DNA of 34,780 nucleotides from Clostridia bacterium (GTDB lineage: Bacteria; Bacillota; Clostridia; Oscillospirales; Acutalibacteraceae): positions 1 to 34,780 of the forward strand of contig JAFTXJ010000018.1 of assembly GCA_017461625.1 (NCBI GenBank), read 5' to 3'. Of this stretch, positions 344 through 13,973 are shown piece after piece (positions within the stretch are counted from its first letter, which is position 1; each line of letters starts with the position of its first letter). The notes below the pieces were generated by a model that was not told where the DNA came from, ran no database searches, and saw only the letters and a list, made by a program, of their open reading frames with translations. A program made the translations under genes and the position numbers.

Positions 344-2986
344 TTACTCAACCAACCCATATTTTACTTTGATACGGTCCATTTTTTCAAGCATTGGTTC
401 GGCAGCGAGCATAATGAATATAATTGTTCCAAAGCCGTGTACCAGGTCCATAGGAAGTCCTGAAATGTAATATGCCATCAAGGCTTTAACTGTTATTGAC
501 TGTGACGAATACATAAACATTGATGCAGGGTTCATTATTCCGCCGTAAATAACAACAGCGGCAAATGCACCGAAAACGGCAAGGGAAACCCGTGTTCTGC
601 GAAGCCATCCTTTTTTGAAAAGAATTCCTGCAAGAAAACCTATAATACCCATTGCAAACATCTGCCATGGAGTCCACGGTCCTTGAGAGAACAGCATATT
701 TGAAAGAAGCATTGTAACGGCTCCTACAAGGAATCCCGCTTCTCCGCCGAAAGCTACACCTGCGATTATTGTAAGTGCAAGAACTGGCTTAAACTGCGGA
801 AGCATAAAAAAAAGGCTTCTGCCTGCTATTCCGATTGCACAAAGCACAGCGATTGTCACAAGCTCTCTTGCCTTAGGCTTTCTACCCTCAAACACGAGAA
901 CAAACGGCAACATACACTCTAAAAGCACAAGCAGTGCGACAATGTTATACTGTCGGTTGTCGAGATAAAAAATCCCTGCAAATATGGTCAGCGGGATAAA
1001 GAGCAATATAGCAACAGATGCCACAATTGTCCGCTTGCTTAAGTTCCGTTTTTCTTTCTGTGTCTGCACTATAAGCGGCGGTTCGCTCCGTCTTCCGATT
1101 ACAATCATAAACACGGTAAGAGCAACAAACAAAATCCCGTAAAGCCATAATTGGTTTTTACCCGCTTCACTTATGCCCGAAGAATTTATAAGTGCTGATA
1201 AATCGGTAATTCCCGTTGCATAGAAAAACACAGCCAATGAAATAAGCCCTGATGCTGCAGCAAGAATTTTACGCCATAGTTTAAGTGGTTCAGGCTTGAA
1301 ATTTACACTTCTCGGGGCAGGCTCAGGCAAAAGTGTTATTTCATCCGCACTTTCTTTTTTCTTAATCTCTCCGCCACAGCAAGCAATGATTTCATCAACC
1401 GTTATCGCATTGGGAATGAGGTGCCTTGCCATACGGTTTGCAGATGTTGTGTAGAAGTTATTACCTGAGAAGAACTCACGGGGAGTGCCTTCTGCGACAA
1501 GATTACCGTCAAAAAACATACCGCATCTGTGTGCATATTCTGCACAGAAGGTCACATCATGGCTGACCATAAGCACGGTTACGCCCTGATTTGTCAGCTT
1601 ACCGATAATATCTGCAAATGTTACCTTGAATTCTGCATCAAAGCCTTTTGTCGGTTCATCGAGAAGAATTATATCGGGTGCGGTAAGAAGAACTTTTGCA
1701 AGTGCAGTTCTTTGCTGTTCACCGCCTGAAATGTCATAAGGGTGTCGGTCAAGAAAGTCAGTCAGCGAGCAAAGACTAACCACACGGGCAACCTGCTCAT
1801 CCTTTTCTTTCTTTGTGATTTTTACATTACTTAGAGCCTCATATAAATCCTCACGCACAGTTCTTTTCACAAAAAGCGCCTGCGGATTCTGCGGTAACAT
1901 TCCAACCTTACCGTTTGCTTTTACATTACCTCGGTAAGCCTTGCGAAGTCCCGAAATCACTTTCAGCGTTGTTGTTTTACCTGCACCGTTACCGCCGAGA
2001 ATTGCATAAAATTCACCCTTGTGCAGAGTGAGAGAAAAGCCTTTTATAACATCGGGCAGGTCTTTTTCGTATCTAAACCATATTTCATCACACTCAAGTG
2101 TTATTTCGTCAGTATATGTATGCGCTTTTTCCCTTTCAAGGGTACGAAGTGCTTTTTCTTTGCTTCTTTCAGTCAGGAACTCACTGCCGTCACGGACTGT
2201 CAGAGGACAAGGAAGATTTGTTTCAACGCCTGCCCACACTCTCATCGCTGTCGGCATAGCAAGGAACATTCCGTTGTCCTTATCACGAAGATGAAGTCCC
2301 ACTTTTTCGGGAGAATCATCACTGATAATTTCACCTTTCTCCATAACAATAACTCTTGTTGCAAATGGAAAAGCTTCTTCAAGTCTGTGTTCGGTAAGAA
2401 TAACCGTTATACCGAGCTCACGGTTGATTTTGCCGAGAAGAGCGAGGAAATCAGAAGCGGCAATAGGGTCAAGCTGTGCTGTAGGTTCATCAAGTACAAG
2501 TATCTTCGGATTCATACACATAACCGAAGCAAGGCTGAGAAGCTGTTTCTGACCTCCTGAAAGCTCGGTTACATTCTTATAGAACCAATTTTCAATACCG
2601 AAGAATGCTGCAACCTCTGCCACACGTCGGCGGATAGTCGGTGTATCAAGCCCGAGGCTTTCAAGTCCGAAAGCAAGCTCGTGCCATACCTTATCGGTTA
2701 CCACCTGATTTTCGGGAGACTGAAGCACAAAGCCTATTTCCTGCGCCTGTATTCTCTCGTCAACCTCATTAAGTGCTTTGCCGTTAAACAGAATTTCACC
2801 GTCGAGCACACCGTGAGGTGTAAGGCAGGTTTTGAGGTGACGCAAAAGTGTTGATTTGCCGCAGCCTGACGGACCGCAGAGAATCAGAAATTCACCCTGT
2901 GATACATCGAAGGAGATATTACGAAGAGCTTTGTTTTCCTGCTCGGGATATGCGAAGCTTACATTTCTGAAACTGAAGTTTTCCAT
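344..2986 (-). CDS. ECF transporter: two ATPase domains fused to a membrane S component (probable corrinoid uptake)
   Basis: This 880-residue protein carries the energising and substrate-binding parts of an energy-coupling-factor vitamin importer on one chain. The first ABC domain has Walker A GPSGCGKST (38-46), signature LSGGQ (142-146) and Walker B LVLDEP (163-168). The second has GGNGAGKTT (331-339), ISGGEQQ (419-425) and LLDEP (441-445). Hydrophobic helices start near 575; about 700-865 resembles an S component, with a conserved-looking GEAGFLVGAVTMLLSNM stretch (748-764). The ATG at 2986 is preceded by AAGGAGG, and upstream methionine codons lack such a site. It overlaps the ecfT gene by 28 bp and is last in a cobalamin-riboswitch operon, so B12 or a related corrinoid is the inferred substrate (CbrT-like role). 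Fusion of EcfA1, EcfA2 and an S-like domain is unusual. Which helices bind substrate is not resolved. Confidence 0.85.
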   Translation of the reverse strand: MENFSFRNVSFAYPEQENKALRNISFDVSQGEFLILCGPSGCGKSTLLRHLKTCLTPHGVLDGEILFNGKALNEVDERIQAQEIGFVLQSPENQVVTDKVWHELAFGLESLGLDTPTIRRRVAEVAAFFGIENWFYKNVTELSGGQKQLLSLASVMCMNPKILVLDEPTAQLDPIAASDFLALLGKINRELGITVILTEHRLEEAFPFATRVIVMEKGEIISDDSPEKVGLHLRDKDNGMFLAMPTAMRVWAGVETNLPCPLTVRDGSEFLTERSKEKALRTLEREKAHTYTDEITLECDEIWFRYEKDLPDVIKGFSLTLHKGEFYAILGGNGAGKTTTLKVISGLRKAYRGNVKANGKVGMLPQNPQALFVKRTVREDLYEALSNVKITKKEKDEQVARVVSLCSLTDFLDRHPYDISGGEQQRTALAKVLLTAPDIILLDEPTKGFDAEFKVTFADIIGKLTNQGVTVLMVSHDVTFCAEYAHRCGMFFDGNLVAEGTPREFFSGNNFYTTSANRMARHLIPNAITVDEIIACCGGEIKKKESADEITLLPEPAPRSVNFKPEPLKLWRKILAAASGLISLAVFFYATGITDLSALINSSGISEAGKNQLWLYGILFVALTVFMIVIGRRSEPPLIVQTQKEKRNLSKRTIVASVAILLFIPLTIFAGIFYLDNRQYNIVALLVLLECMLPFVLVFEGRKPKARELVTIAVLCAIGIAGRSLFFMLPQFKPVLALTIIAGVAFGGEAGFLVGAVTMLLSNMLFSQGPWTPWQMFAMGIIGFLAGILFKKGWLRRTRVSLAVFGAFAAVVIYGGIMNPASMFMYSSQSITVKALMAYYISGLPMDLVHGFGTIIFIMLAAEPMLEKMDRIKVKYGLVE

Positions 2987-3849
2987 TTTCTCTCCTCCTT
3001 GTAGTTTAATATCACGGGTGTAATGCAAAGTGCGGAATATACACAATAGAAAGGTATTGTTGTCATATCAAATGCAGCATAACGAATATCCGGGAAATAT
3101 CTGAAGCCGAAAGCGTTAAGCAAAGTCCCCTCAATGATAAACAATCCACAGAAAGAAAGCCATATAAGAGCGTATTTGTCTCTTTCTTCAAATCGATAAA
3201 TTGAAAAAGCAGTTCTGCCTTTTAGTCCGTATCCGCGGCTTTTCATACTGTCAGCAGTTTCAATGGCATTTTCAAGCGACCATGTTATCATAATTGAAAA
3301 TATGTGAATTGCCGTCTTTGTCCTTTCGAAAAGGCTTCCGTTCGACACATCTCTGCCGATGCTTCTTTGCGCTTCAGTGACAGTCTGCATCTGCGATTTG
3401 AATTTAGGAACAAATCTTAAAGACATACTCAGCACAAGTGACAAAGCAGGAATAACCTTGCCGAAAAGATAGATAAACTTGTCCGTTGTCATCAACCTGT
3501 TAAAGGACGAAAACCACATCAGCGTTGTAATTATCATCACGCCTGCAGAAAATCCGTACAGAATGCTCTCCAAGGTAAGTGGATTGCCATTCGGAAAATA
3601 CAGCAGAGTTGTTGCACCCTCGTGATTGAATGCAGGGTTGATAAATGCAGTCAGAAGCACCGTCGGCAGACAGTATTTCAAGAGAAATATCACGCTTTTC
3701 TTCCCATTTATACTTACTGCATAAATAACAGCACACACGAGAGAAATCCCTTGTGCCAACGGGTGTGTCAGCACAAGAGAAAAGCTTATCGTAAATCCAA
3801 AATATATTAAATTTATAAAAGGATGATATTCTAAAAATGAATCTCTCAT
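2959..3849 (-). CDS. ecfT: ECF transporter transmembrane coupling subunit EcfT (CbiQ family)
   Basis: This roughly 296-residue integral membrane protein has several hydrophobic helices and the EcfT coupling-helix signature with an x-R-G motif (MKSRGYG, around residue 204). EcfT subunits connect the two ATPases to the substrate-binding S component and transmit ATP-driven motion. Here the ATPase and S parts are fused in the next gene, so this protein completes the transporter. I chose the ATG at 3849; a TTG at 3861 would add four residues and overlap the preceding lipoprotein gene, but sits almost on top of the GAAGGAA ribosome-binding sequence. The 3' end overlaps the fusion gene's start, suggesting translational coupling. 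Confidence 0.85.
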   Translation of the reverse strand: MRDSFLEYHPFINLIYFGFTISFSLVLTHPLAQGISLVCAVIYAVSINGKKSVIFLLKYCLPTVLLTAFINPAFNHEGATTLLYFPNGNPLTLESILYGFSAGVMIITTLMWFSSFNRLMTTDKFIYLFGKVIPALSLVLSMSLRFVPKFKSQMQTVTEAQRSIGRDVSNGSLFERTKTAIHIFSIMITWSLENAIETADSMKSRGYGLKGRTAFSIYRFEERDKYALIWLSFCGLFIIEGTLLNAFGFRYFPDIRYAAFDMTTIPFYCVYSALCITPVILNYKEERKWKTSVSEM

Positions 3850-3854
3850 AAATT

Positions 3855-4973
3855 TTACCAAGTTCCTTCACGACCGACATCGTTACCGAGGTCACATGTA
3901 TAACGCCATTCCACTTTTTCGCCGTCTGCAAGCTGATAACGGGAGCAACCATAATTGGGATACCATCCGTTAACACGGTACATCCATCCTGAAAGCTCAC
4001 CGCAGTCAAATTCATAAAGATTGTTTATGCCTTCGATATAGGCACTGTTATAAACAGGTGTCCATGAGGATTCCATATGTATGTTATTTTCCTTACAAAC
4101 ACGCTGAAGCACATCGTAGACCGATTCACCTTCATAGAATGCCACCTTTGTGGGCGGTAAAATAACACCGTCTGAAGGTACCAGATGACGTTTATCAGGA
4201 TCGAGGTCAGAAAGGTTATTCAGGATTGTTGAACATTCAATGGAAAAGATGCAGGTATATGTCTTTTTGTTGTTGATTTCCTGATTTTCAGGCTCAACAG
4301 GCATAGGCTTCCCTTCGGGTACAGGGTCAGTGTCATACTTATCCTTTCCTGTTGCAGTACCGTCAGAATAAACTCTGTCATCAGAGTTCTGCACACCTGA
4401 AAGATATTTGTCTTTTTCGCTTGAAACAGAATCATTTTCTGTCGGATTTGTATTTTCTGCAGTGGTGTCTTCTGTATATTTTGTTTCATCGGGTAAAATT
4501 TCAATTTCACGAATAATCTTGTTTACAGATATATTCAGAATACTTGTTTTACTTCCTGTTACAGAAACAGAATAAACACCCTTGCCGCCGTTAAAAGCGG
4601 TTGCACTGTCTGCTGACCATTTTTCTTTGATATGAATGGAAAGTAAGGCGGGAAAGCCCAAATCCTTCGTTTCGGTAAAATTGACCTTTATGCCTTTATC
4701 TGATTTGTTCAGGACAACGGATAAATTTACATCCTTTGTTTCATTGATGTCACTGCCGAAAACAGTCCATTCGTATTTAATATCATTTGATGAACCTGTG
4801 AATGTGGCGATAGCGTTTTCGTTTTTGACTTTATCTAAAACACTTTTCTCAACAATACCGTTTTCCGGAATAGCTATGGGTTCATTAAGGTTAACCTGTG
4901 TGAAATTACCACTGCAGGCTGTAGTTGTCATAAGAAGCACGAAGGCTAATATTAAACATATTATTCTTTTCAT
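3855..4973 (-). CDS. Lipoprotein with C-terminal DUF4430 / transcobalamin-like C domain
   Basis: The 372-residue product begins with a lipoprotein signal ending at Cys20 (TTTAC). A beta-rich segment (about 30-155) and a Thr/Ser/Asp-rich linker (about 160-238) follow. Residues 239-372 form a DUF4430-type domain with the hallmark SGWMYRVNGWYPNYG (328-342) and a YxLxDGExVEW-like end. DUF4430 (Pfam Transcobalamin-like_C) is related to the beta domain of intrinsic factor and transcobalamin, which closes over cobalamin. It is probably the membrane-tethered corrinoid-binding protein of this importer. It starts 1 nt after the preceding stop codon with GGAG as ribosome-binding site, and is followed by ecfT. 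Ligand binding is inferred from family and riboswitch, not shown. Confidence 0.85.
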   Translation of the reverse strand: MKRIICLILAFVLLMTTTACSGNFTQVNLNEPIAIPENGIVEKSVLDKVKNENAIATFTGSSNDIKYEWTVFGSDINETKDVNLSVVLNKSDKGIKVNFTETKDLGFPALLSIHIKEKWSADSATAFNGGKGVYSVSVTGSKTSILNISVNKIIREIEILPDETKYTEDTTAENTNPTENDSVSSEKDKYLSGVQNSDDRVYSDGTATGKDKYDTDPVPEGKPMPVEPENQEINNKKTYTCIFSIECSTILNNLSDLDPDKRHLVPSDGVILPPTKVAFYEGESVYDVLQRVCKENNIHMESSWTPVYNSAYIEGINNLYEFDCGELSGWMYRVNGWYPNYGCSRYQLADGEKVEWRYTCDLGNDVGREGTW

Positions 4974-4974
4974 T

Positions 4975-5601
4975 TTAATCTCCTATAACAATTTTGCCGT
5001 TTCTGACATTAAGTGTACCGGTTGTCATTGCCAGACTTTGTGTTTCGTCTGATGCCGCAAAAACAGCATCTTCGAAAACAAGGTCACATACATCGCCTTT
5101 GCGAAGACTTCCTCTGAAACGGAATTTCAGGCGAAGCACAACATTGTCGTCCTTTGCAAGCAAGTCTTTGTCAAACGCATTCTTTCCGCCTGTTGTGTCA
5201 AGGTACATAATGTTGATTTTACCCGTTTTGTTGCATTGAGTCGGGTTACAGCTCCAGTCCGGTAGTCTTTGTTCAATCTCTTCACCGTCATTACGGATAA
5301 AAACGTTACCTTCTTCTATACCTATAAACTCAAGCTTTGACGGGTCAAATACAATGCTCATACTTGCAGCCGGATATTTAGCTTCACCGAATGATGATAT
5401 TGTCACGTCGAGGGTGATTTCATCTGTTTCGGAAAGGCTGATTTTCTGCGGAGTTTCTATTGTAAGTGTATGTTTGCCGAACGGGTTTTCACCGCAGAAT
5501 GAAAAAAGGAGAAACAGTATCAACAAAAGCAGTAAAACGCCGATTGAGATACCAATTTTTATTCTCTTTTTTGTTTTCGGTTCCAATTTGCTTTTACTCA
5601 T
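4975..5601 (-). CDS. Membrane-anchored cohesin-like domain protein
   Basis: This is a 208-residue protein with a Lys/Arg-rich N-terminus, one transmembrane helix (about 15-35) and an extracellular beta-sandwich (about 42-206). The sandwich has cohesin-like features: a LTIETPQKISL opening strand, LDVTI, SMSIVFDPSKLEFIGI, then LRLKFRF and LVFEDAVF strands. Cohesins bind dockerins, and the gene just upstream encodes a secreted protein ending in a dockerin. The simplest reading is a surface anchor that retains the dockerin protein next to the importer. The ATG at 5601 is preferred over 5607 because AGGAG lies 7 nt upstream of it but only 1 nt upstream of the other. The cohesin call is by pattern only. 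Confidence 0.7.
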   Translation of the reverse strand: MSKSKLEPKTKKRIKIGISIGVLLLLLILFLLFSFCGENPFGKHTLTIETPQKISLSETDEITLDVTISSFGEAKYPAASMSIVFDPSKLEFIGIEEGNVFIRNDGEEIEQRLPDWSCNPTQCNKTGKINIMYLDTTGGKNAFDKDLLAKDDNVVLRLKFRFRGSLRKGDVCDLVFEDAVFAASDETQSLAMTTGTLNVRNGKIVIGD

Positions 5602-5616
5602 ATTCATTCTCCTAAG

Positions 5617-5643
5617 AGGGGTGGGCGTGTCAGTCCCACCCCT
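5617..5643 (-). promoter_or_regulatory. GC-rich intercistronic hairpin
   Basis: A perfect 9-bp inverted repeat (AGGGGTGGG at 5617-5625, CCCACCCCT at 5635-5643) with a 9-nt loop sits between the stop codon of the secreted dockerin protein and the start of the cohesin-like gene. No U-run follows on the minus strand, so it is more likely an mRNA-stability or processing element than a full terminator. It could lower expression of the downstream genes relative to the secreted protein. Confidence 0.6.
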
Positions 5644-5653
5644 TAATAATCAG

Positions 5654-8434
5654 TTAGTTATTAGCTGTAATAGTTGCTGCCTTTGTAACAACGATGTATT
5701 CACTGCCGTCTACAAACGCTTCAACGATACCGAGAGCATCAAATGTATTGATTCTGCTGTCACTGTTCACATTGAGGGCGAGAATCTTGTCATCTGACGG
5801 TGCATCTGTTTTACGAAGCCAGGAATCAACTGCACCGAGTGCATCCTGTGCATTGATTACTCCGTCACCGTTTGCATCGCCGAATATGATTTCATCAGCG
5901 TTGTCATCAGAGAGAACAAAATTCTGCTTATCAACGAACTTCGCCATATCAATTGAAGAATCAACAAGTGCAACGTAAGTTGAAATACCTGTTTTATCAG
6001 AAATTTCTGTGCTGTACTTGAATTCATAACCGTTGATGCCGTCGTTGTAGTTGAGCTTTGCACCGGCCTTTGCACCGACAACTGCTACTGCAACGGCCAT
6101 TTTCTCCGAGGGGATAAGGTCAACATTATCACCAACATAGAGACACATTGCACTATAAGAAACACCTGTTACAACATTTACCGTACCGCTTGCATCCGTA
6201 ATGTCAACGATAATCATAGAGTTTTCATCCGAAGAATCTGAATTGAGTTTAACGGACATTCCGCTGATGTTAAAGCCAAGCTTGTCGCCTGCAGTTACGG
6301 AATCGACACGGAAAGTAATTGTGAAAAGAAGTGCCGGGAAGGTGGTTCCGCTTACTGTGATATCGCTATGGTTGTTAGCGTCAAAGTAAACTGCACGGAG
6401 CTTACCTGTGCTTTCTTCAACATTGTAATTTACCGTTCCGCCCGAAAGACGGCTTTCGGCTGTAACTGCCGTAACTGTAAGACCTTCGGGAACATTCATA
6501 ATAAAATCAATAAGCTTGTAGCCTGCGTTGTTATCCCACTGGTCAATGCTGATTGTTGCGTTGAAAGTTTTGCCGACCTCATCGGATATTTCAGCAGGAA
6601 GCCCGAGAGTTGCTGTCATCTTACCTGGAACGATTTCAACATTTTCATCAAATGCAACATCAGACATATCAAAAAGATTTGTTTTGTTATTTATAAAACG
6701 CTTGTAGGCAACAAGAGCGTAGCAAGATTGGTCAGTAGCCATACCGTTTGCATCTGCGCCTGCAATATGTTCAAACTGCGCCTTATCTTCAAGATAATGG
6801 AGAAGCAGTCCGTCAACAACAGATTTTCCGTTCTTTACAAAACGGCTGTCGGTATCAGGATTGATGCCCCATGTTGTGCAGGCAACGATTACCCATGCAC
6901 AGCTTTCAGAGCATTCACTTCCGCCCGATGCAAATGTACCGTTTTCGTGCTGTATTTCAGAAAGACAATCAAATGCTTTTTCACAAGCTTCAGCTACAGC
7001 TGTCTGATTGCGATAGGGATACAAAGCCTGAAGCGCCATACCCGTAACATCAGGGTCAGATGCGTAAGTCTTGTTTGCCTGTAATGCCCAACCGCCATCA
7101 TCATGCTGAAGTGAGAGGATGGAATCAATACACTGCTGACGGATGGTTTCATCGCTTGTTTCATAGTTGCCCGAATCCAACGCGATAAGTGCCCATATCG
7201 TACCGTTAAGACCCTGCTTTTTAACCCAATCAAAACCGTTCAGGCTGTATGCTTCAACAAGATTCCAATCACCAACAGCAGTTGCATCCTTACCGATAGA
7301 TGAAAGTGCAACAATCAAACGGGAATTTTCTGTTGATTTATTTGTGTGGAGTGCACCGTTCATATTAACCGATGAAGCTGTTTCATTTACTGTTGAAACA
7401 ATACGGTTGTAGTAATCATTAAAATAAGTGCTGTTCTTTTCAAAATATTCACCGCGTGCCAGACTCAACACTGTCCATTCACCTGCGTCAGTACCGAAAG
7501 CAGGTTCTTGTACTGTATCAGCAAGCTGTGCCATTGTAGCATTAAGCACAGCGCTTACATCCTGAGGCTCACGGGGAGCATCCGCCGATGTAACTGTTAC
7601 CTCTGCATAGCCGGGAGCAGAAACGATTGAATCGGGATATTCGTTACCATAACCTCCGTCAACCCAAAGATACCATTTTCCTGCAGATGGGAAAGTGATA
7701 GATGCACATCCGCTGTCATCTGTTGTTACACTTCCCGTTTCATTATAGAGTGCTTTACCGTAATGTACTTCATAATCAGGTATTTCAAAGAAAACGGAAT
7801 TGTATTCATAATCCTTTGTGCCTTTAATAAGCTTGATGTCGCAAGCTTTGGCTGTTTCTGTGGTGTAAGAATGTGTTACATCACCGTTTGCATCAGCAAA
7901 ATAATGAAAACCGTAAGCCGAGTCCTGATAGAAATCCCAGCTTGTAAAGCCTGCAAGGTCAATAAAGTCGCCTGCTTCAAGAACAATCTGGTCAGAAGTT
8001 GCACCCCATCCTCCGCTTGCAAGAGGATACTGACCGTTCAGATAATAGTTGAGGTTTTCGTCTCTGCCGAAAAGACCGCCTGCAAAATATGAGCTACCGG
8101 GACTACCTGTAAAAGTTACCTCGCTCCAATCACCGCCGTAAAGCTCTTCGTGAGCGAAGATAATAAGCTGTAAAGCGGTAATATCATATTCTCCGTCACC
8201 GTCTTCGTCATAAAGATATTCTGAAAGACCGTATTCATTCAAATCAACAGATTTAAGTGTTTCAAAGGATACGGGAATATAAGCAATAGGTGTACCGCTT
8301 TGGTCGTTGGTATATTTATCATCATAGCTTACAGAGATATAAACATATTCGCTTTCTGATGCAACAGACATAAGTGGTGTTGCTGTTAGCAGCATTGCGA
8401 TGGCGAGAATAACGCTTAAAATTCGCTTTTTCAT
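5654..8434 (-). CDS. Secreted intrinsic-factor-like protein with cohesin-like and dockerin domains
   Basis: The 926-residue product starts with a signal peptide (about 1-27). Residues 28-200 resemble a DUF4430-like beta domain (ALQLIIFAHEEL, YYLNGQYP, then LEAGDFIDL). Residues about 300-585 form an alpha/alpha barrel related to prenyltransferase/intrinsic-factor repeats (LQHDDGGWAL, DVTGMALQALYPY, then CYALVAYKRF). About 604-756 is cohesin-like. Residues 851-912 are a dockerin with two Ca-binding loops (D853/N855/D857/D864 and N888/N890/D892/D899). Together the barrel and beta domains recall the two halves of mammalian intrinsic factor. It is the second gene behind a cobalamin riboswitch, supporting a role in corrinoid capture at the surface. 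The ATG at 8434 has AAGGAG upstream; in-frame codons further upstream would place the signal peptide internally. Confidence 0.85.
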   Translation of the reverse strand: MKKRILSVILAIAMLLTATPLMSVASESEYVYISVSYDDKYTNDQSGTPIAYIPVSFETLKSVDLNEYGLSEYLYDEDGDGEYDITALQLIIFAHEELYGGDWSEVTFTGSPGSSYFAGGLFGRDENLNYYLNGQYPLASGGWGATSDQIVLEAGDFIDLAGFTSWDFYQDSAYGFHYFADANGDVTHSYTTETAKACDIKLIKGTKDYEYNSVFFEIPDYEVHYGKALYNETGSVTTDDSGCASITFPSAGKWYLWVDGGYGNEYPDSIVSAPGYAEVTVTSADAPREPQDVSAVLNATMAQLADTVQEPAFGTDAGEWTVLSLARGEYFEKNSTYFNDYYNRIVSTVNETASSVNMNGALHTNKSTENSRLIVALSSIGKDATAVGDWNLVEAYSLNGFDWVKKQGLNGTIWALIALDSGNYETSDETIRQQCIDSILSLQHDDGGWALQANKTYASDPDVTGMALQALYPYRNQTAVAEACEKAFDCLSEIQHENGTFASGGSECSESCAWVIVACTTWGINPDTDSRFVKNGKSVVDGLLLHYLEDKAQFEHIAGADANGMATDQSCYALVAYKRFINNKTNLFDMSDVAFDENVEIVPGKMTATLGLPAEISDEVGKTFNATISIDQWDNNAGYKLIDFIMNVPEGLTVTAVTAESRLSGGTVNYNVEESTGKLRAVYFDANNHSDITVSGTTFPALLFTITFRVDSVTAGDKLGFNISGMSVKLNSDSSDENSMIIVDITDASGTVNVVTGVSYSAMCLYVGDNVDLIPSEKMAVAVAVVGAKAGAKLNYNDGINGYEFKYSTEISDKTGISTYVALVDSSIDMAKFVDKQNFVLSDDNADEIIFGDANGDGVINAQDALGAVDSWLRKTDAPSDDKILALNVNSDSRINTFDALGIVEAFVDGSEYIVVTKAATITANN

Positions 8435-8469
8435 TATTGAATCTCCTTTTTGATATTTTTCTTTTTGTT

Positions 8470-8769
8470 TTAACCGAAAGTATTCTGTTCTTTCGGTTCG
8501 GTTCTGTGTTTCTCCAACTTCTGTCGTGCAGAAACAGTTTGGTTTTTGGAGCTGATAGTTGCCCTTTTTCTCTTTTTGGATTTTACAGGAACAGGTTTCG
8601 CTTCTTTTAATCCGGCAGCTTCCAACGCCCTTGGCCAAGGACCTAAGAAGGCTTTGATTCGTGACCGTGTGGGTTCATCAAAATCATCCTTTTTGGGCAA
8701 TCTTCCGAGTTCCTCAGCTTTTCTTTTCAAAAGTTCTTCCGCCCAGGACTTTTTCTCATCTGATGTCAC
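8470..8769 (-). CDS. Small protein with a homing-endonuclease-associated (HNH) repeat
   Basis: This 99-residue basic protein starts at a GTG (8769) with AAAGGAGG about 8 nt upstream. Residues about 9-55 match the helical repeat often found beside HNH/homing endonucleases: AEELGRLPKKDDFD, then IKAFLGPWPRALEAAGL. The C-terminal part is Lys/Arg/Gln-rich and looks disordered. No nuclease residues are seen. It is the first gene after the cobalamin riboswitch terminator and lies 35 bp upstream of the secreted protein gene. Its position suggests it is co-regulated by B12, and the repeat suggests DNA binding, but its role here is unknown. Confidence 0.7.
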   Translation of the reverse strand: MTSDEKKSWAEELLKRKAEELGRLPKKDDFDEPTRSRIKAFLGPWPRALEAAGLKEAKPVPVKSKKRKRATISSKNQTVSARQKLEKHRTEPKEQNTFG

Positions 8770-8792
8770 TTGTCAAACCTCCTTTACAAAAT

Positions 8793-8829
8793 AAAAAATA
8801 CCCTTTCAACCAAAAAGGTCAAAAGAGTA
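8793..8829 (-). terminator. Riboswitch-controlled intrinsic terminator
   Basis: On the minus strand TACTCTTTTGACC (8829-8817) pairs over 13 bp, with G-U pairs, with GGTTGAAAGGGTA (8811-8799) around a 5-nt loop, followed by six U (8798-8793). It lies between the cobalamin aptamer and the first gene's ribosome-binding site. The 5' arm can instead pair with an upstream antiterminator segment (8931-8921, AAGAGTGCAAC with GTTGTACTCTT), giving an 11-bp alternative helix. This is the expected layout for transcription attenuation when cobalamin is bound. Confidence 0.85.
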
Positions 8830-8959
8830 CAACAGATTAACGCGGTACGACAACAATAACTTCGGACTGCACAAAATAAAAAAGAACGCAATCCAAAATC
8901 TACCATACTACGATAAATCGGTTGCACTCTTCTCACCAAAGTTGTGTTGAACCTAAAAA

Positions 8960-9128
8960 GACACGGCAGGTGTTCTGACTTAAGGAACAGATATCAAAGC
9001 AGATTATAAACCGCAGAAATGCAGACAATAACCTGATTTTCAATTCCAACACAGTAATGGCGGTTGTTCAGGATTCGAACCTGATTCCCTTTTACATCTA
9101 CTCAGCTTACAACTTTTCAAACCGTATC
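8960..9128 (-). promoter_or_regulatory. Cobalamin riboswitch aptamer
   Basis: The minus strand carries the cobalamin-riboswitch core. AAAAGGGAAT is followed by a CAGGTTCGAATCCTG hairpin and then AACAACCGCCATTACTGT, matching the conserved B12-box region (GGGAA, AATCC, CCGCC, CTGT). The 3' part has AAGTCAGAACACCTGCC, matching the terminal conserved segment. The closing P1 stem is visible as GATACGG (9128-9122) with CCGTGTC (8966-8960), 7 bp. Cobalamin binding is known in this family to switch off downstream genes. The six genes downstream are therefore predicted to be expressed when B12 is scarce. Whether it prefers adenosylcobalamin or hydroxocobalamin is not resolved. Confidence 0.93.
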
Positions 9129-9156
9129 TTCTCATATCAGTATTAAATTTTTATAT

Positions 9157-9185
9157 ATTGTAGCATAGTTGACAAGTTTTTTCAA
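9157..9185 (-). promoter_or_regulatory. Promoter of the cobalamin riboswitch operon
   Basis: On the minus strand TTGAAA (9185-9180) and TACAAT (9162-9157) are separated by 17 bp, a good sigma-A-type promoter. Transcription would start near 9150, just upstream of the riboswitch P1 stem. Confidence 0.75.
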
Positions 9186-9276: not shown

Positions 9277-9642
9277 TTAATTACATATTAAGTTGTTTGT
9301 GACAATCTCTCTTGCCCTTGCCTCTATATTTTGCACACGGCACACCCATTCCATCTGATTTTCCTCTTTCAGGTGTTCTGTAACACCTTCAGCTTCTTTC
9401 ATTTGCTCAACTAAAGTATCAAACATATCTCGTGCCTGATTTTCAATTTCAGCACAGTGCTGATATAGTTTTCCTTGTGCAAGTAGTGTTGTAAACAGCA
9501 CCTTCTTGTGTTTTAGAAGTTCGTCTTTATGTAACATACCCCACTTGCCGAGAGTAATGTTTGCTTCTTCGGGTGGTAAAATGAGGTTTGGGATTAAATA
9601 ATCACCAACCTGACGATATTGGATTGTGTTTTGATTTGACAT
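9277..9642 (-). CDS. tnpV: TnpV family protein (Tn4451-type element accessory protein)
   Basis: This 121-residue protein matches the TnpV family first seen in Tn4451/Tn4453-like elements: LPPEEANITLGKWGMLHKDEL near 21-41, followed by a long helical region ending in ARAREIVTNNLI. The family's biochemical role is not established. ATG at 9642 has AAAGGAGG upstream. No recombinase (TnpX/TnpZ) or other element gene is seen nearby, so this is either an orphan remnant or a domesticated copy. The gene has its own terminator and a possible promoter (TAGACA, 17 bp, TACAAT) around 9675-9705 on the minus strand. Confidence 0.8.
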   Translation of the reverse strand: MSNQNTIQYRQVGDYLIPNLILPPEEANITLGKWGMLHKDELLKHKKVLFTTLLAQGKLYQHCAEIENQARDMFDTLVEQMKEAEGVTEHLKEENQMEWVCRVQNIEARAREIVTNNLICN

Positions 9643-9825: not shown

Positions 9826-11115
9826 TTAATGCCCGTTTGCGGGATTGTCAATAATCTTCCCTTGCTCATCAATCCGAGTTCCGTGGCAAGGGCAATCCCA
9901 GGAATGCTCAGCATCATTCCATTTAAGCGCACAGCCGAGGTGAGGACATCTTTTGGTAGAAAAGGACAACAAATTGCTCACCGTTTCAAAGCCATTTACC
10001 AAAAGCTGAGGCTTAAGCACACTTCTTGAAGGGTCAAAAATATGAGCAAAATCATTATCCTTTTCTTCAATCATATCACACAAAAGCTCTGCCGCAACCA
10101 TTGCGCCTGTCATTCCCCATTTATTAAAACCGCTTGCAACAAACAGCCTTTTCGTGTGCTTTGAATACTTACCGATATACGGAATATCATCAAGACTCAT
10201 ACAATCCTGAGTTGCCCAATGAAACTTTTCGCTGCTTTCAGGGTAATTCACCTTAACAAAGTCCCTGATTCCTTGCCAGTTACCGCCGTTTTTACCTGTT
10301 CTGTGATCGCCGCCGCCCACAATCAGACAATCAGCGTAATTGCGAAAAGACATTCCCTTTTTGCTTTCATCAACATACATTCCACCCACATCGGGAGCGT
10401 TTTTGAGGGCAACAGCATATGATCGGTGTTGATAAAGCTTAAATGAAAATCCACCGTGTTTATTGATAAAAGGAAAATGAGTTGCAACCACCACGTTTTT
10501 TGCTTCTATTCTGCCAAAATCCGTAACAGCAGTGTTACCTATCATCTCTTTGACAAACGTGTTTTCATAAATATTCAAATTTTTGCTGATGTGAGCAAGA
10601 AATTTTAAAGGGTGAAACTGTGCCTGATTTTTAAACTCAACTGCACCGACAGTGTCAAAAGGTAAAGGCAGATTTTTGCAAAAATTTGCCAAGTAACCGA
10701 TTTTATTTAAAGCATCAAGTTCCTTTTCAATTTTTCGTCTGTCATCAAGAGAGTACACAAAATTATTTTTCACCTGATAATCACAGGCAATTTTTCGGCA
10801 AAGGTCGCTGTATTTTTTAAAGGCGTTCTGATTTGCCTTAAGATACGTTTTTGCACCGTCAACACCAATGTTTTTTACAAGCTTTTGATAGATCAGCCCA
10901 TGCTGAAAAGTTATTTTTGCAGTTGTGTTGCCTGTGACCCCACTGCAAAGAGTATTTTTTTCAACAAGGATGTAGTCAATATTTCTTTGATGCAAAAAAT
11001 ATGCCGTCAGCAAACCTGCAATTCCGCCGCCGATTATGAGAACATCGGTTTTGCAATCACCATTCAGATGTCCAAAGTGAGGCATAATATTACCGTCTTG
11101 CCATAATGATTTCAC
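9826..11115 (-). CDS. FAD-dependent oxidoreductase with C-terminal Rieske [2Fe-2S] domain
   Basis: This 429-residue protein has an N-terminal DAO-type FAD fold with the dinucleotide motif VLIIGGGIAG (25-34). At its C-terminus are Rieske ligands in CPHLGC (390-395) and CPCHG (408-412). DAO-Rieske fusions occur in many bacteria; they oxidise an amine-type substrate at FAD and pass electrons to the iron-sulfur cluster, but the substrate is unknown. There is no signal peptide, so it is cytoplasmic. The likely start is a GTG at 11115 preceded by GAGGTGG. It is transcribed alone, divergently from the GNAT gene, and ends in its own terminator. Confidence 0.88.
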   Translation of the reverse strand: MKSLWQDGNIMPHFGHLNGDCKTDVLIIGGGIAGLLTAYFLHQRNIDYILVEKNTLCSGVTGNTTAKITFQHGLIYQKLVKNIGVDGAKTYLKANQNAFKKYSDLCRKIACDYQVKNNFVYSLDDRRKIEKELDALNKIGYLANFCKNLPLPFDTVGAVEFKNQAQFHPLKFLAHISKNLNIYENTFVKEMIGNTAVTDFGRIEAKNVVVATHFPFINKHGGFSFKLYQHRSYAVALKNAPDVGGMYVDESKKGMSFRNYADCLIVGGGDHRTGKNGGNWQGIRDFVKVNYPESSEKFHWATQDCMSLDDIPYIGKYSKHTKRLFVASGFNKWGMTGAMVAAELLCDMIEEKDNDFAHIFDPSRSVLKPQLLVNGFETVSNLLSFSTKRCPHLGCALKWNDAEHSWDCPCHGTRIDEQGKIIDNPANGH

Positions 11116-11679: not shown

Positions 11680-13278
11680 TTATTGCTTGTCTTCTGCCAT
11701 TTCTTCCAGGTATTCATCAAAGGTGATTTCCTTATCATAGAAGCTACCGGTTGTTACATCAATAATTCTTGTGGCGATTGTCTGCACAAACTGGTGGTCG
11801 TGAGAGGTAAACAAAACTGTTTCAGGGAACTTGATAATTCCGTTGTTAAGGGAAGCGATTGATTCCAAATCAAGGTGGTTTGTTGGCTCATCAAAGAGTA
11901 AAACATTAGCCCCTGAAAGCATCATTTTACAAAGCATACAGCGAACACGCTCACCGCCTGAAAGCACCTTCGCTTTTTTGGTAGCTTCTTCGCCTGAAAA
12001 CATCATTCTGCCAAGCCAGCCACGAACATCAGATTCAAAAATCAAATCTGAATATCTTCTCAGCCAATCAATAAGGCTATCCTCACAGCCGTCAAAAAAC
12101 TCAGAGTTGTCACTGGGGAAATATGACTGTGAAGTAGTCACGCCCCACTTAAATTCGCCCTCATCAGGCTCCATTTCACCCATAAGAATTTTGAAAAGAG
12201 TTGTTTTTGCAAGGCTGTCAGTGCCGACAAATGCAACTTTTTCTCTCGGCTTAATTGTGAAGCTTACGTTATCAAGCACCTTTCTTTCACCGATTGTTTT
12301 AGAAATTCCGCTAACGGTAAGAAGGTCGTTTCCAACTTCTCGGTCAGGCTTAAAGTCAACAAACGGAAAACGTCTTGATGAAACAGGAATATCTTCAATA
12401 ACAAGATTATCAAGAAGCTTTTTACGGCTCGTTGCCTGCTTTGACTTGGAAGCATTGGCACTGAAGCGTGCAATGAAATCCTGCAATTCCTTTTTCTTAG
12501 CTTCTGCTTTCTTATTCTGTTCACGCAGTTGACGCTGTGCCATCTGTGTATATTCATACCAGAAGTCATAGTTGCCCACGTACATTGCAATTTTACCAAA
12601 GTCAATATCAACAATATGGGTACAAACTTTATTTAAAAAGTGACGGTCATGGGAAACAACAATAACTGTGCTGTCAAGCTCAATCAAAAACTCTTCAAGC
12701 CAGCTGATTGCGTCAATATCAAGGTGGTTGGTGGGCTCGTCCATAAGAAGAATCTGAGGATTTCCGAAAAGAGCCTGTGCAAGAAGCACCTTAACCTTCA
12801 TCGCATCGGTCAGCTCGCTCATCTGAAGATAATGAAACTCATTGGTAACACCAAGTCCGTTCAAAAGAATTTCTGCATCACTTTCGGCACTGTAACCGCC
12901 CATTTCTGCAAATTCATCTTCAATTTCACAAACTCTGATACCCTCCTCTTCAGTTAAATCAGTTTTAGAATAAAGGTCATCACGCTCGTCCATGATTTTG
13001 CAAAGTTCCATATTTCCCATAAGAACGGTGCGAATTACTGAATATTCATCAAATTCAAAGTGATTCTGCTTCAAAACAGAAAGTCGCTCACCGGGGGTAT
13101 ATATAACCTCGCCTTTATTCGGCTCAATTTCACCTGAAAGAATTTTTAAAAAGGTTGACTTACCTGCACCGTTTGCACCGATAAGTCCGTAGCAGTTGCC
13201 TTTGGTGAATGCCATATCAACATTTTTAAAAAGCTCTCTGCCACCGTACTGAAGTCCTACATTAACTGTGCTTATCAT
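11680..13278 (-). CDS. ABC-F family ATP-binding protein
   Basis: This 532-residue protein has two ABC ATPase domains, no membrane segment and a charged linker (about 240-300) between them, as in ABC-F proteins, which act on ribosomes. Domain 1 has Walker A GANGAGKST (34-42) and LLMDEPTNHLD (177-187), but its signature is degenerate (MSELTDA). Domain 2 has a canonical LSGGERVR (439-446) and LLFDEPTNHLD (460-470), but its Walker A reads GTDSLAKTT (352-360), missing the usual GxNGxGKS glycines. Which ABC-F subgroup it belongs to (Uup, EttA, YbiT or resistance type) I cannot tell. Its start overlaps the S24/S26 peptidase gene by 17 bp, so the two are likely translationally coupled. Confidence 0.88.
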   Translation of the reverse strand: MISTVNVGLQYGGRELFKNVDMAFTKGNCYGLIGANGAGKSTFLKILSGEIEPNKGEVIYTPGERLSVLKQNHFEFDEYSVIRTVLMGNMELCKIMDERDDLYSKTDLTEEEGIRVCEIEDEFAEMGGYSAESDAEILLNGLGVTNEFHYLQMSELTDAMKVKVLLAQALFGNPQILLMDEPTNHLDIDAISWLEEFLIELDSTVIVVSHDRHFLNKVCTHIVDIDFGKIAMYVGNYDFWYEYTQMAQRQLREQNKKAEAKKKELQDFIARFSANASKSKQATSRKKLLDNLVIEDIPVSSRRFPFVDFKPDREVGNDLLTVSGISKTIGERKVLDNVSFTIKPREKVAFVGTDSLAKTTLFKILMGEMEPDEGEFKWGVTTSQSYFPSDNSEFFDGCEDSLIDWLRRYSDLIFESDVRGWLGRMMFSGEEATKKAKVLSGGERVRCMLCKMMLSGANVLLFDEPTNHLDLESIASLNNGIIKFPETVLFTSHDHQFVQTIATRIIDVTTGSFYDKEITFDEYLEEMAEDKQ

Positions 13279-13723
13279 TGGTTTTTGCTCCTAATCTTAT
13301 CTTAATTGAATTTATTATTCGATTTTTCCACCTGATTGCAGGCAGAGTGATTTTATATTTTTTAAAATACATATTGTTTAATTTCAGCACCTTGCCGTTT
13401 CTTTCAACAGCTTCAAGAATGCCCAAAATCACTGATTTATCAACAGTTTCCGTTGTCCATTGGCTATCCCCTCGCAAGGTGATTTCACTGCCGTTTATTG
13501 CAACAATTCTGTGAAGAACAAGCCTTCCGTTAGCTCTTTTATAAAGAACTATATCCCCTACCGCAAGGGGATTTTGAATTTCAGAAATAACTACGGTATC
13601 TTCACAGTCTTTGATAACAGGCTCCATACTTTTTCCCGATGCCGTAATTCTGACTTTACCGCCTGAGGATAAAACCTCTTCAATCACAGGCGACATTTCT
13701 TTTAAAGAAAGAGTGTCACTCAA
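13262..13723 (-). CDS. S24/S26 peptidase-like protein (SipW-like Ser/His)
   Basis: This 153-residue protein has the signal-peptidase/LexA-fold motifs: nucleophile region SGKSMEPVI with Ser32, then GDIVLYK (56-62), LHRIV with His71 and RGDSQ (84-88). His in place of the usual Lys is as in SipW/ER-type signal peptidases. Unlike these, it shows no clear transmembrane helix. Small S24/S26-like proteins occur with PqqD, HprK-like kinase and ABC transporter genes in RiPP-type loci, and that is its context here. A peptide-processing role is inferred. The start is a TTG at 13723 overlapping the PqqD stop; an ATG nine codons later is the alternative. Confidence 0.75.
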   Translation of the reverse strand: MSDTLSLKEMSPVIEEVLSSGGKVRITASGKSMEPVIKDCEDTVVISEIQNPLAVGDIVLYKRANGRLVLHRIVAINGSEITLRGDSQWTTETVDKSVILGILEAVERNGKVLKLNNMYFKKYKITLPAIRWKNRIINSIKIRLGAKTNDKHS

Positions 13724-13973
13724 TTATATCCGCCCTTTCAAGGGTTGAGATAAATTCTTCAACATCTTTATTGATTTCATCAGCAGTCACATTGCATTCT
13801 TTTGCAAGGGCAACAATTATCTCATCTTTTTCTGCACCCTTTTCGATCATTCGCCATATGAATTTTGCTGTTTCATTCACAGTGATAATTCCCTGAAAAT
13901 CCATACCTGCAGTTGAAACCACTATGTTCATTCCGCTGACCTCACGCAATTTGTATTCAGGTTTAATTTTCAT
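13716..13973 (-). CDS. PqqD family protein (RiPP recognition element-like)
   Basis: This 85-residue protein matches the PqqD fold: an N-terminal beta hairpin (YKLREVSGMNIVVS), then VNETAKFIWRMIEKGAEKDEIIVALAKE, then a final helix with VEEFISTLERADII. PqqD-like domains bind leader peptides of ribosomally made peptides and hand them to modifying enzymes or proteases. No precursor peptide is seen nearby. I use the ATG at 13973, which overlaps the ABC transporter stop codon by 11 bp and has GGGTGA upstream; a TTG at 13994 would add seven residues. Confidence 0.82.
   Translation of the reverse strand: MKIKPEYKLREVSGMNIVVSTAGMDFQGIITVNETAKFIWRMIEKGAEKDEIIVALAKECNVTADEINKDVEEFISTLERADIIE

What the first reader, a model, noticed from the sequence alone, without database searches (positions are those of the whole stretch)
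344..9185. Riboswitch-controlled corrinoid uptake operon built from intrinsic-factor-like, cohesin and dockerin parts
Seen: a cobalamin riboswitch precedes a secreted protein with an alpha/alpha barrel like the alpha half of intrinsic factor, a cohesin-like domain and a dockerin. It also precedes a membrane-anchored cohesin-like protein, a lipoprotein with a DUF4430 domain (related to the beta half of intrinsic factor), and an ECF transporter. Known: mammalian intrinsic factor and transcobalamin bind cobalamin between these two domain types; cohesin-dockerin pairs assemble cellulosomes. Inference: the bacterium uses a cellulosome-style lock to hold a B12-capturing complex on its surface beside the importer. 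This would be a Gram-positive parallel to surface B12 capture by BtuG in Bacteroides.
Basis: partly seen in the sequence, partly recalled or inferred. Interest (0 to 1): 0.9.

Follow-up and report, generated by a model that had tools for sequence, protein, structure and literature searches.

The report
Dockable intrinsic-factor-like vitamin B12 receptor operon
A gut-type bacterium appears to trap vitamin B12 outside the cell with a two-part protein built like our stomach's intrinsic factor, holding it beside its importer with a private plug-and-socket pair of the sort known from plant-fibre-degrading machines.

Summary
The lipoprotein model matches mammalian B12 carriers: 17 of the 18 PDB hits at E<=0.001 are transcobalamin, intrinsic factor or haptocorrin. 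The 926-aa model also hits transcobalamin, but at rank 39, so the toroid half is less certain.

Relatives show a B12-riboswitch operon (toroid + DUF4430 + ECF) in many Bacillota, whose toroid protein reaches the surface by interchangeable anchors: membrane tail or sortase signal, SLH, or dockerin. The window's variant is rare: a distinct dockerin plus its own cohesin gene, together in 10 of 78 operons and both absent from 68, with at least five changes on the EcfT tree. This dockerin is closer to its counterparts in 7 of 8 other genomes than to any of 22 others compared from its own. Six such genomes searched lack CobS.

Best reading: surface corrinoid capture by an intrinsic-factor-like complex held by a private cohesin-dockerin lock. 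B12 binding and docking are untested. My paper searches found no description.

The parts
8948..9141 (-). Cobalamin riboswitch aptamer at the head of the operon
   Evidence: RF00174, 50.9 bits, gathering 31.5, E 5e-10
8470..8769 (-). Small HNH_repeat protein (99 aa), first gene of the operon, function unknown
   Evidence: PF18780 47.9 bits; the only HNH_repeat match in this genome, and in 4 of 5 other genomes searched a match lies at this operon
5654..8434 (-). Secreted 926-aa putative corrinoid-capture protein: signal peptide, N-terminal region, alpha/alpha toroid, cohesin fold, X module, dockerin
   Evidence: ORF and translation; domains
7586..8362 (-). N-terminal region (residues 25-283); DUF4430-like in 7 relatives, divergent and poorly modelled in the window's copy
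   Evidence: hhalign 99.8% for an alignment of 7 relatives, 16% for the window's own with L093; pLDDT mostly under 50
6644..7585 (-). Alpha/alpha toroid (residues 284-597), candidate alpha half of the B12 clamp
   Evidence: pLDDT mostly above 90; the 926-aa model hits transcobalamin 7qbe_C (E 7.2e-5) and squalene-hopene cyclase 1sqc (E 4.9e-5), ranges not shown; conserved in 75 aligned stretches
6170..6619 (-). Internal cohesin-like domain (residues 606-755)
   Evidence: 926-aa model hits solved cohesins, e.g. 2vo8 TMt 0.75, 2xdh TMt 0.73; hhalign to the operon cohesin 93%; PF00963 in 1 of 9 relatives only
5900..6169 (-). X-type module (residues 756-845) preceding the dockerin
   Evidence: Aligned in 10 of 10 Doc/Coh loci, including L161 which lacks the internal cohesin
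5720..5899 (-). Dockerin (residues 846-905) with A-Q / T-F at the recognition positions
   Evidence: PF00404 27.9 bits in the isolated piece; alignment with 22 own-genome dockerins
4975..5607 (-). Membrane-anchored cohesin (210 aa, N-terminal hydrophobic anchor), proposed socket for the dockerin
   Evidence: PF00963 38 bits; 6 close matches (itself included) in 398 genomes, each at this operon; profile hits solved cohesins
3855..4973 (-). Lipoprotein with DUF4430, the transcobalamin-beta-like half
   Evidence: PF14478 66.6 bits; model pLDDT 86.4; 17 of 18 PDB hits at E<=0.001 are mammalian B12 carriers
2959..3861 (-). EcfT (CbiQ-type) transmembrane energy-coupling component
   Evidence: PF02361 33.6 bits
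344..2986 (-). Fused EcfA-EcfA'-S protein (two ATPases plus substrate-binding S component); ORF opens at 3046, likely ATG at 2986
   Evidence: TIGR04520 347.1 bits over cut-off 315; PF12822 and PF07155 over cut-off at residues 726-881 of the 900-aa ORF

Best explanation
This is a B12-repressed surface corrinoid-capture and import operon. When cobalamin is scarce the riboswitch lets the operon be read. The toroid of the secreted 926-aa protein and the DUF4430 domain of the membrane lipoprotein close on a corrinoid from two sides, as the alpha and beta domains of intrinsic factor and transcobalamin do, and pass it to the S component of the dedicated ECF importer. The secreted protein has no membrane tail or SLH domain that my scans recognise; its X-dockerin plugs (calcium-dependent) into the membrane-anchored cohesin encoded by the next gene, which keeps the capture protein next to the lipoprotein and importer. 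SHOWN by computation: parts, riboswitch, DUF4430 fold, toroid fold in general, operon conservation, anchor exchange, co-occurrence of dockerin and cohesin, distinct dockerin. INFERRED: corrinoid as ligand, the two-sided clamp, the cohesin-dockerin pairing itself, hand-over to the S component.
For: Riboswitch: in the window, in 8 of 9 other Doc/Coh loci; of 30 RF00174 hits in 36 relatives, 17 lie within 300 nt upstream of a toroid, DUF4430 or HNH_repeat ORF (two of these 17 are below the gathering score), 5 are farther off or beside no such ORF, and 8 lay outside fetched stretches and were not examined. DUF4430 fold; its sequence profile ranks transcobalamin first in the PDB at E 0.0033. Toroid. 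Anchor exchange among 129 toroid ORFs: C-terminal membrane segment 55, SLH 30, dockerin 25, internal membrane segment 7, none seen 12; 85 of the 129 have EcfT downstream. Lock: this dockerin type and the cohesin gene agree in 78 of 78 operons, 10 with both and 68 with neither; 5 independent starred contrasts all go the same way; a single clade is rejected, p-AU 1e-110 on a quick tree. Dockerin: 53-91% identity to its counterparts in seven other genomes and 36% in L161, best 39% among 22 others of its own genome. Physiology: CobS in 0 of 6 genomes, B12-binding domain in 6 of 6, 5 above cut-off.
Against: No binding or interaction data exist. By sequence the toroid profile finds squalene-hopene cyclase (E 7e-20) and alpha-2-macroglobulin but no transcobalamin or intrinsic factor at E<=10. 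By fold, transcobalamin is rank 39 for the whole 926-aa model, behind cohesins, TEP1, squalene-hopene cyclase, pilins, complement C3 and others; its alignment spans 488 columns at rmsd 22 and the aligned range is not shown, so it cannot be credited to the toroid with certainty. The S component matches no named S family at cut-off. One Doc/Coh locus, L161, has no riboswitch at gathering score. The contrast test has only 5 pairs and cannot reach p 0.05. 15 of 25 dockerin-bearing toroid proteins have no cohesin gene of this kind next to them. The genome is 86.6% complete, so a scaffoldin could be missing.
Confidence: 0.67

Rival explanations
1. The dockerin does not pair with the operon's cohesin but plugs into a general scaffoldin elsewhere in the genome, as the ordinary dockerins of R. 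bromii-type relatives presumably do.
For: The genome has 24 dockerin matches and 4 cohesin matches including the window's own of each (one of the 4 cohesins is below cut-off); 15 toroid proteins of relatives carry other dockerins with no such cohesin gene beside them; the genome is incomplete.
Against: Dockerin type and neighbouring cohesin gene coincide in 78 of 78 operons; the recognition positions (A-Q / T-F) differ from the mostly S, A or G residues of the 22 own-genome dockerins compared, none of which has Q at the second position of the first loop.
Confidence: 0.1
2. The internal cohesin of the 926-aa protein binds the dockerin of the next copy, so the protein forms chains or a coat, with the membrane cohesin only nucleating it.
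For: The 926-aa model hits solved cohesins; R. bromii Amy4 carries both a cohesin and a dockerin and is proposed to self-aggregate (PMC5814915, section 7 read).
Against: Terrisporobacter (L161) keeps X-dockerin and membrane cohesin but lacks the internal cohesin, so chaining is not required; the internal cohesin is only distantly related to the membrane one.
Confidence: 0.2
3. The ligand is not complete cobalamin but a corrinoid precursor or fragment such as cobinamide, a pseudo-cobamide or the lower ligand.
For: The S component falls below the cut-off of each NCBIfam S family it matches. R. bromii, which bears a relative of the operon, is reported unable to make B12 (PMC6231298, passages), which fits any salvage. 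A B12 ECF transporter of Lactobacillus takes cobalamin and cobinamide (PMC5997447, passages).
Against: CobS, needed to finish cobinamide into a cobamide (recalled), has no match in any of 6 genomes searched, which favours complete cobamides; the DUF4430 fold is that of proteins that hold whole cobalamin.
Confidence: 0.15
4. The toroid is a secreted enzyme (terpenoid cyclase or prenyltransferase relative) or a peptide-binding or adhesive domain, and B12 control is incidental.
For: The best sequence relatives in the PDB are squalene-hopene cyclases, with thioester proteins further down; they also score by fold.
Against: It is secreted and repeatedly next to DUF4430 and ECF genes behind B12 riboswitches; 6 relatives carry toroid and DUF4430 on one chain in the order of intrinsic factor. 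In the alignment the cyclase D-x-D-D stretch reads D-x-D-x-T here (the motif's role is recalled).
Confidence: 0.08

Closest known systems
Mammalian intrinsic factor, transcobalamin and haptocorrin
   Same: A beta domain of the same fold as DUF4430 together with an alpha/alpha toroid; in those carriers the two halves enclose cobalamin (recalled; solved complexes are named)
   Different: In the window the halves lie on two proteins, are surface-bound and stand beside an importer; identity in the fold alignments is 12-18%
Cellulosome and amylosome cohesin-dockerin systems (e.g. C. thermocellum, R. bromii)
   Same: Type I dockerin with two calcium loops, X module and genuine cohesin; the 926-aa model hits C. 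thermocellum multimodular chains 3kcp_A and 4fl4 (range not shown, presumably the cohesin-X-dockerin tail); Amy4 of R. bromii also carries cohesin plus dockerin
   Different: The cargo is a putative vitamin receptor, not an enzyme; one cohesin sits in the same operon; no cellulase domain among 10 other dockerin proteins of the genome
BtuG/BtuB of Bacteroides
   Same: Surface protein that captures B12 beside an importer (PMC6977713, passages)
   Different: BtuG is a beta-propeller that works with the outer-membrane transporter BtuB; no shared fold is claimed here
ECF-CbrT of Lactobacillus delbrueckii
   Same: ECF transporter for B12 (PMC5997447, passages)
   Different: The passages seen for CbrT mention no extracellular capture protein; here the T, A, A' and S parts are encoded with two extracellular proteins
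DUF4430 protein of R. gnavus (PDB 3u7z, 'putative metal binding protein')
   Same: Similar fold (rank 18, E 6e-4); its being a DUF4430 protein is recalled
   Different: Short single chain; the record's title names no B12

Membership tests
Cobalamin riboswitch (RF00174) | Covariance-model score above the gathering score | tested here: met
   50.9 against 31.5 bits, full length 1-189
Intrinsic factor / transcobalamin family | Beta domain fold | tested here: met
   17 of 18 PDB hits at E<=0.001 are B12 carriers, TMt 0.75-0.77 to isolated transcobalamin beta domains
Intrinsic factor / transcobalamin family | Alpha/alpha toroid domain of the carrier type | tested here: inconclusive
   Toroid modelled with high confidence; the 926-aa model hits transcobalamin at E 7.2e-5 but the range is not shown, and cyclases and thioester proteins score similarly; no sequence link
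Intrinsic factor / transcobalamin family | Alpha then beta domain on one polypeptide | tested here: not met
   Two separate genes in the window; met in 6 relatives: L046, L048, L049, L052, L054, L059
Intrinsic factor / transcobalamin family | Cobalamin binding | not testable with these tools
   Needs protein and ligand
Cohesin | PF00963 above cut-off / cohesin fold | tested here: met
   38 bits against 24.1; 10 of 10 orthologs match at E<=0.1; profile hits solved cohesins
Type I dockerin | Two calcium-loop F-hand repeats, PF00404 | tested here: met
   27.9 bits against 22.9 in the isolated piece, 10 of 10 orthologs at E<=0.1; 22.3 bits, just below, in the whole ORF
Cellulosome | Multi-cohesin scaffoldin carrying dockerin-borne plant-cell-wall enzymes | tested here: not met
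   4 cohesin matches in the genome, at four separate places; 10 of 23 other dockerin proteins scanned show LRR, GH25, GLUG, DUF4474 or nothing else, no cellulase; genome 86.6% complete, 13 dockerin proteins not scanned
ECF transporter | T, two A and S components | tested here: met
Named B12 ECF S component | Match to a curated S family at cut-off | tested here: inconclusive
   Only weak FolT-family and riboflavin S matches, 27.3 against 60 bits and 25 against 99 bits

The most novel reading that the evidence does not exclude
Bacillota possess an undescribed class of cell-surface corrinoid receptors built on the two folds of vertebrate intrinsic factor, dedicated to ECF importers and switched on by B12 shortage. 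Its anchor is freely exchanged between sortase or membrane tail, S-layer domain, shared scaffoldin and, in the window's group, a private cohesin and X-dockerin that are gained and lost together. As far as my searches show it would be the first cohesin-dockerin lock used for vitamin capture, and a possible bacterial source or parallel of the vertebrate B12 carriers.
Probability: 0.52. Interest if true: 0.88.

Novelty: new variant of a known kind. Interest (0 to 1): 0.78.

Why it matters
How Gram-positive gut bacteria that cannot make B12 compete for it is poorly known; a 2020 review notes gut Gram-positives with btuFCD homologs but no btuB and one ECF case (PMC6977713, passages). This operon gives a concrete machine, present in records of named species (several Paenibacillus, Ruminococcus bromii, Terrisporobacter petrolearius), and makes two questions directly testable: whether bacteria use intrinsic-factor-like clamps, and whether cohesin-dockerin pairs serve nutrient capture and not only enzyme complexes. 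The private pair would also be a new orthogonal building block for protein assembly.

Tried and rejected
Rejected: a simple statement that dockerin and cohesin always go together. My first dockerin profile was too narrow; a wider one found 15 more toroid proteins with other dockerins and no neighbouring cohesin gene of this kind, so the claim was narrowed to this dockerin type. The sortase-signal test is a rough letter pattern; therefore counts C-terminal membrane segments only.

Led nowhere: sequence profiles of the toroid against the PDB for a transcobalamin link (none among the hits at E<=1 or at E<=10); a B12-box letter pattern to verify mapped riboswitches was too strict (11 of 50 loci passed; by coordinates alone 30 of 50 have an RF00174 hit within 350 nt upstream, 5 of the 30 below the gathering score); NCBIfam gives no B12 name to the S, cohesin or DUF4430 proteins; the N-terminal region of the window's own 926-aa protein stays unassigned. 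No complex could be modelled, and Foldseek output shows no aligned ranges.

Rows dropped before counts: L096, L106, L111 and L158 (same contigs as L103, L035, L033 and L038); B2_L093 (near-copy) in the group statistics; one of the 23 other own-genome dockerins was not caught by my profile, so 22 were compared; 27 of the 77 loci listed were left out. A6 holds 75 of 132 and A7 81 of 147 domain stretches listed. The tree holds one row per locus with a toroid ORF and a separate EcfT ORF downstream, 78 rows.

Full report
WHAT IS THERE. The window (contig C11 of a 1.85-Mb genome, 86.6% complete) holds one operon on the minus strand. RF00174 lies at 9141-8948, 50.9 bits. Then come an HNH_repeat protein of 99 aa (8769-8470), a secreted protein of 926 aa (8434-5654), a 210-aa cohesin with an N-terminal membrane anchor (5607-4975), a 372-aa lipoprotein with DUF4430 (4973-3855), EcfT (3861-2959) and a fused EcfA-EcfA'-S protein (to 344). 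Gaps between genes are under 50 nt or the genes overlap.

FOLDS. The 926-aa model (65 aligned sequences) has pLDDT mostly above 90 at 284-597 and about 80-97 from 611 to 890 except a weaker stretch at 731-740; the N-terminal 280 residues and the end of the dockerin (from 891) are poor. Foldseek against the PDB puts mostly solved cohesins on top (2w1n, 4ums, 2vo8, 2xdh and others), includes C. thermocellum multimodular chains (3kcp_A, 4fl4) with 342-351 alignment columns, and lists transcobalamin (7qbe_C, E 7.2e-5, prob 1.00, TMq 0.23, the highest TMq among the 50 rows shown) at rank 39, near TEP1 (rank 14), squalene-hopene cyclase (1sqc, E 4.9e-5, rank 33) and complement C3. The output gives no aligned ranges, and several of these alignments, transcobalamin's included, span more than one domain at rmsd above 20, so credit to the toroid is my inference. 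The toroid is of a fitting fold, but this search does not single out B12 carriers. The lipoprotein model (pLDDT 86.4) does: 17 of 18 hits at E<=0.001 are transcobalamin, intrinsic factor or haptocorrin, with TMt 0.75-0.77 to the isolated beta domain, and the 18th is 3u7z from R. gnavus. A DUF4430 profile from 81 sequences ranks transcobalamin first in the PDB by sequence alone (E 0.0033; the top five of seven hits at E<=10 are B12 carriers). An earlier 27-sequence profile gave it only E 2.1. A 75-sequence toroid profile finds no B12 carrier at E<=10.

A WIDESPREAD SYSTEM. The 926-aa protein matches in 48 of 150 genomes of the same family, some of them only through the dockerin or other short stretches. 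Module profiles show toroid, DUF4430, EcfT, EcfAA' and S as neighbours in many loci; 85 of 129 toroid ORFs have an EcfT ORF on the same strand within 5.5 kb downstream. In six relatives toroid and DUF4430 are one chain in the order of intrinsic factor, with a membrane segment between. Riboswitches: RF00174 was found in 25 of 36 relatives (22 above the gathering score) with 30 places; 22 places lie in fetched stretches, and 17 of these sit within 300 nt upstream of a toroid, DUF4430 or HNH_repeat ORF, two of the 17 being below the gathering score; the other five are 508-4304 nt away or beside no such ORF. For 50 loci of the named genomes, 30 have a hit within 350 nt upstream by coordinates, 5 of them below the gathering score. 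The contig identity behind these coordinates was checked directly only for L102, L103, L121 and L167, where one search gives the same coordinates (L121's hit lies 438 nt upstream). The set was chosen for bearing the toroid, so these figures say how the operon is controlled, not how common it is.

ANCHORS ARE EXCHANGED. Among 129 toroid ORFs in 117 loci: C-terminal membrane segment 55, SLH 30, dockerin 25, internal membrane segment 7, none recognised 12, two of which are cut by the end of the stretch. A rough pattern saw sortase-like signals in 27 ORFs, duplicates included. The SLH and dockerin profiles were built here from these sequences. The domains are constant and the attachment varies. 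This is the strongest argument that the dockerin of the window protein is its surface anchor.

THE LOCK. The window's cohesin has six close matches in 398 genomes of the family (itself included; E 8e-139 to 4e-35); four weaker matches (E 2e-5 to 4e-4) show no toroid gene in the stretches fetched around them. With the named genomes, ten distinct loci carry it: window, L093, L094, L095, L103, L033, L102, L121, L161, L167. In all ten it follows a toroid protein ending in X-dockerin and precedes the DUF4430 gene. PF00963 and PF00404 match 10 of 10 at E<=0.1. In an EcfT tree of 78 operons, dockerin of this type and cohesin gene agree in 78 of 78 rows (10 both, 68 neither). Starred branches force at least five changes, five independent contrasts all agree, and the best tree with the ten held together is rejected (p-AU 1e-110). 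Five contrasts cannot reach p 0.05 by sign test, and the tree is a quick one with some long branches, L167 among them. If any dockerin is counted instead, 2 to 3 of 7 contrasts show a dockerin without the cohesin gene. Nine of the ten loci have the riboswitch upstream; L161 shows none at gathering score.

SPECIFICITY. The genome has 24 dockerin and 4 cohesin matches. The window's dockerin is at best 39% identical to 22 others of its genome, yet 53-91% identical to its counterparts in seven other genomes, and 36% to L161 (the near-copy L093 was left out). At the positions that set specificity in known dockerins (recalled), the operon's type has A-Q in the first loop and T-F in the second in most members, the genome's others mostly S, A or G; none of the 22 has Q at the second position of the first loop. 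Ten other dockerin proteins of the genome, of 23, were scanned: three with LRR repeats (one of them also with a cohesin), one GH25, one DUF4474, one with GLUG motifs, four with nothing but the dockerin; no cellulase. Fifteen toroid proteins of relatives, including those of three R. bromii strains, carry ordinary dockerins with no such cohesin gene next to them; R. bromii has scaffoldins of its own (PMC5814915, section 7 read), so these probably use a shared scaffold.

PHYSIOLOGY. CobS matches in 0 of 6 Doc/Coh genomes searched, while it rings in 10 of 14 control genomes. The B12-binding domain is found in all six, five above cut-off, including frames of 782-819 aa in five of them that have the size of methionine synthase (the name is inferred). 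Corrinoid users that cannot complete cobamides would gain from capture. R. bromii, which bears a relative, is described as unable to make B12 (PMC6231298, passages).

MECHANISM. Commitment: surface corrinoid capture by a split intrinsic-factor-like clamp, held by a private cohesin-dockerin lock, feeding a dedicated ECF importer, derepressed when B12 is low. Shown: parts, DUF4430 fold, conservation, co-occurrence. Inferred: ligand, clamp, pairing, hand-over. The N-terminal region is DUF4430-like in an alignment of seven Doc/Coh relatives (hhalign 99.8%), so those proteins may carry both halves themselves; in the window's copy it is too divergent to say.

NOVELTY. Searches for DUF4430 with cobalamin, intrinsic factor with dockerin and cohesin, cobalamin riboswitch with cohesin and Firmicutes, transcobalamin with Firmicutes and ECF transporter, DUF4430 alone, cobalamin riboswitch with squalene, surface and transcobalamin, dockerin with cobalamin, R. 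bromii with dockerin and amylosome, and BtuG with Firmicutes, ECF and Gram-positive showed no description of the system in the rows listed; some searches listed only the top of longer lists. Passages were seen in PMC4350170, PMC3766115, PMC5997447, PMC2667541, PMC5814915, PMC6231298, PMC10553843 and PMC6977713, and one section of PMC5814915 was read. The library holds only openly licensed PMC papers. That DUF4430 is labelled transcobalamin-like in InterPro is recalled, not checked, and would mean that the fold link itself is not new. Each part is a known kind; the assembly and its use are not, as far as these searches go, hence 'new variant of a known kind'.

Noticed in passing
window 8470-8769; also L036, L040, L093, L094, L095, L102, L103, L105, L108, L115-L118, L126, L132, L135, L152: A small HNH_repeat protein (conserved stretch around LGPWPRALEAAGL) sits between riboswitch and toroid gene in the window; 21 such ORFs occur among 117 loci, 18 of them within 200 nt of, or overlapping, the toroid ORF downstream. 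In five Doc/Coh genomes it is the only HNH_repeat match, except one extra in G318, and it is absent from G008. It may be a new regulator of corrinoid uptake.
   Followed up: partly
L053 1731-2993 (G000:C3): The genome's only other cobalamin riboswitch (101.1 bits) precedes a 157-aa protein that looks DUF4430-like by eye and a 167-aa protein similar to the S component, so both B12 switches found in the genome seem to govern DUF4430 plus S pairs.
   Followed up: partly
L131, L165, L170 (Ruminococcus bromii) and L045, L108, L125, L140, L146, L156, L160, L171, L173, L174, L176, L180: Toroid proteins end in ordinary dockerins without a neighbouring cohesin gene of the window's kind; a vitamin receptor might ride on the amylosome scaffoldins in R. 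bromii.
   Followed up: partly
L056 9681-9938 with a riboswitch at 10110-10333 (G132:C10): A decayed relative: short fragments 74-79% identical to the window's toroid, one with an internal stop, still behind a cobalamin riboswitch.
   Followed up: no
L167: A Doc/Coh operon on a record titled Bifidobacteriaceae (Actinomycetota) MAG, unlike the other bearers, which are Bacillota where named; transfer or mis-binning cannot be told apart here.
   Followed up: no
L107, L110, L120, L129, L135, L138, L144, L147, L148, L154, L163, L164, L175: Large toroid and DUF4430 proteins with SLH domains or several toroids per chain (up to 2952 aa, L135), many in Paenibacillus; possibly multivalent B12 receptors on the S-layer.
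   Followed up: partly
window 3858-4973, residues 30-160 of the lipoprotein: A second, N-terminal beta-rich domain of unknown kind, shared by 9 of the 10 Doc/Coh loci and a few other relatives.
   Followed up: no
window 9277-9642: TnpV transposon-encoded protein just upstream of the riboswitch.
   Followed up: no
window 13262-15663: A short protein resembling a signal peptidase, a 92-aa PqqD-like protein and an ABC exporter in a row, judged by eye from translations; could be part of a peptide maturation cluster.
   Followed up: no
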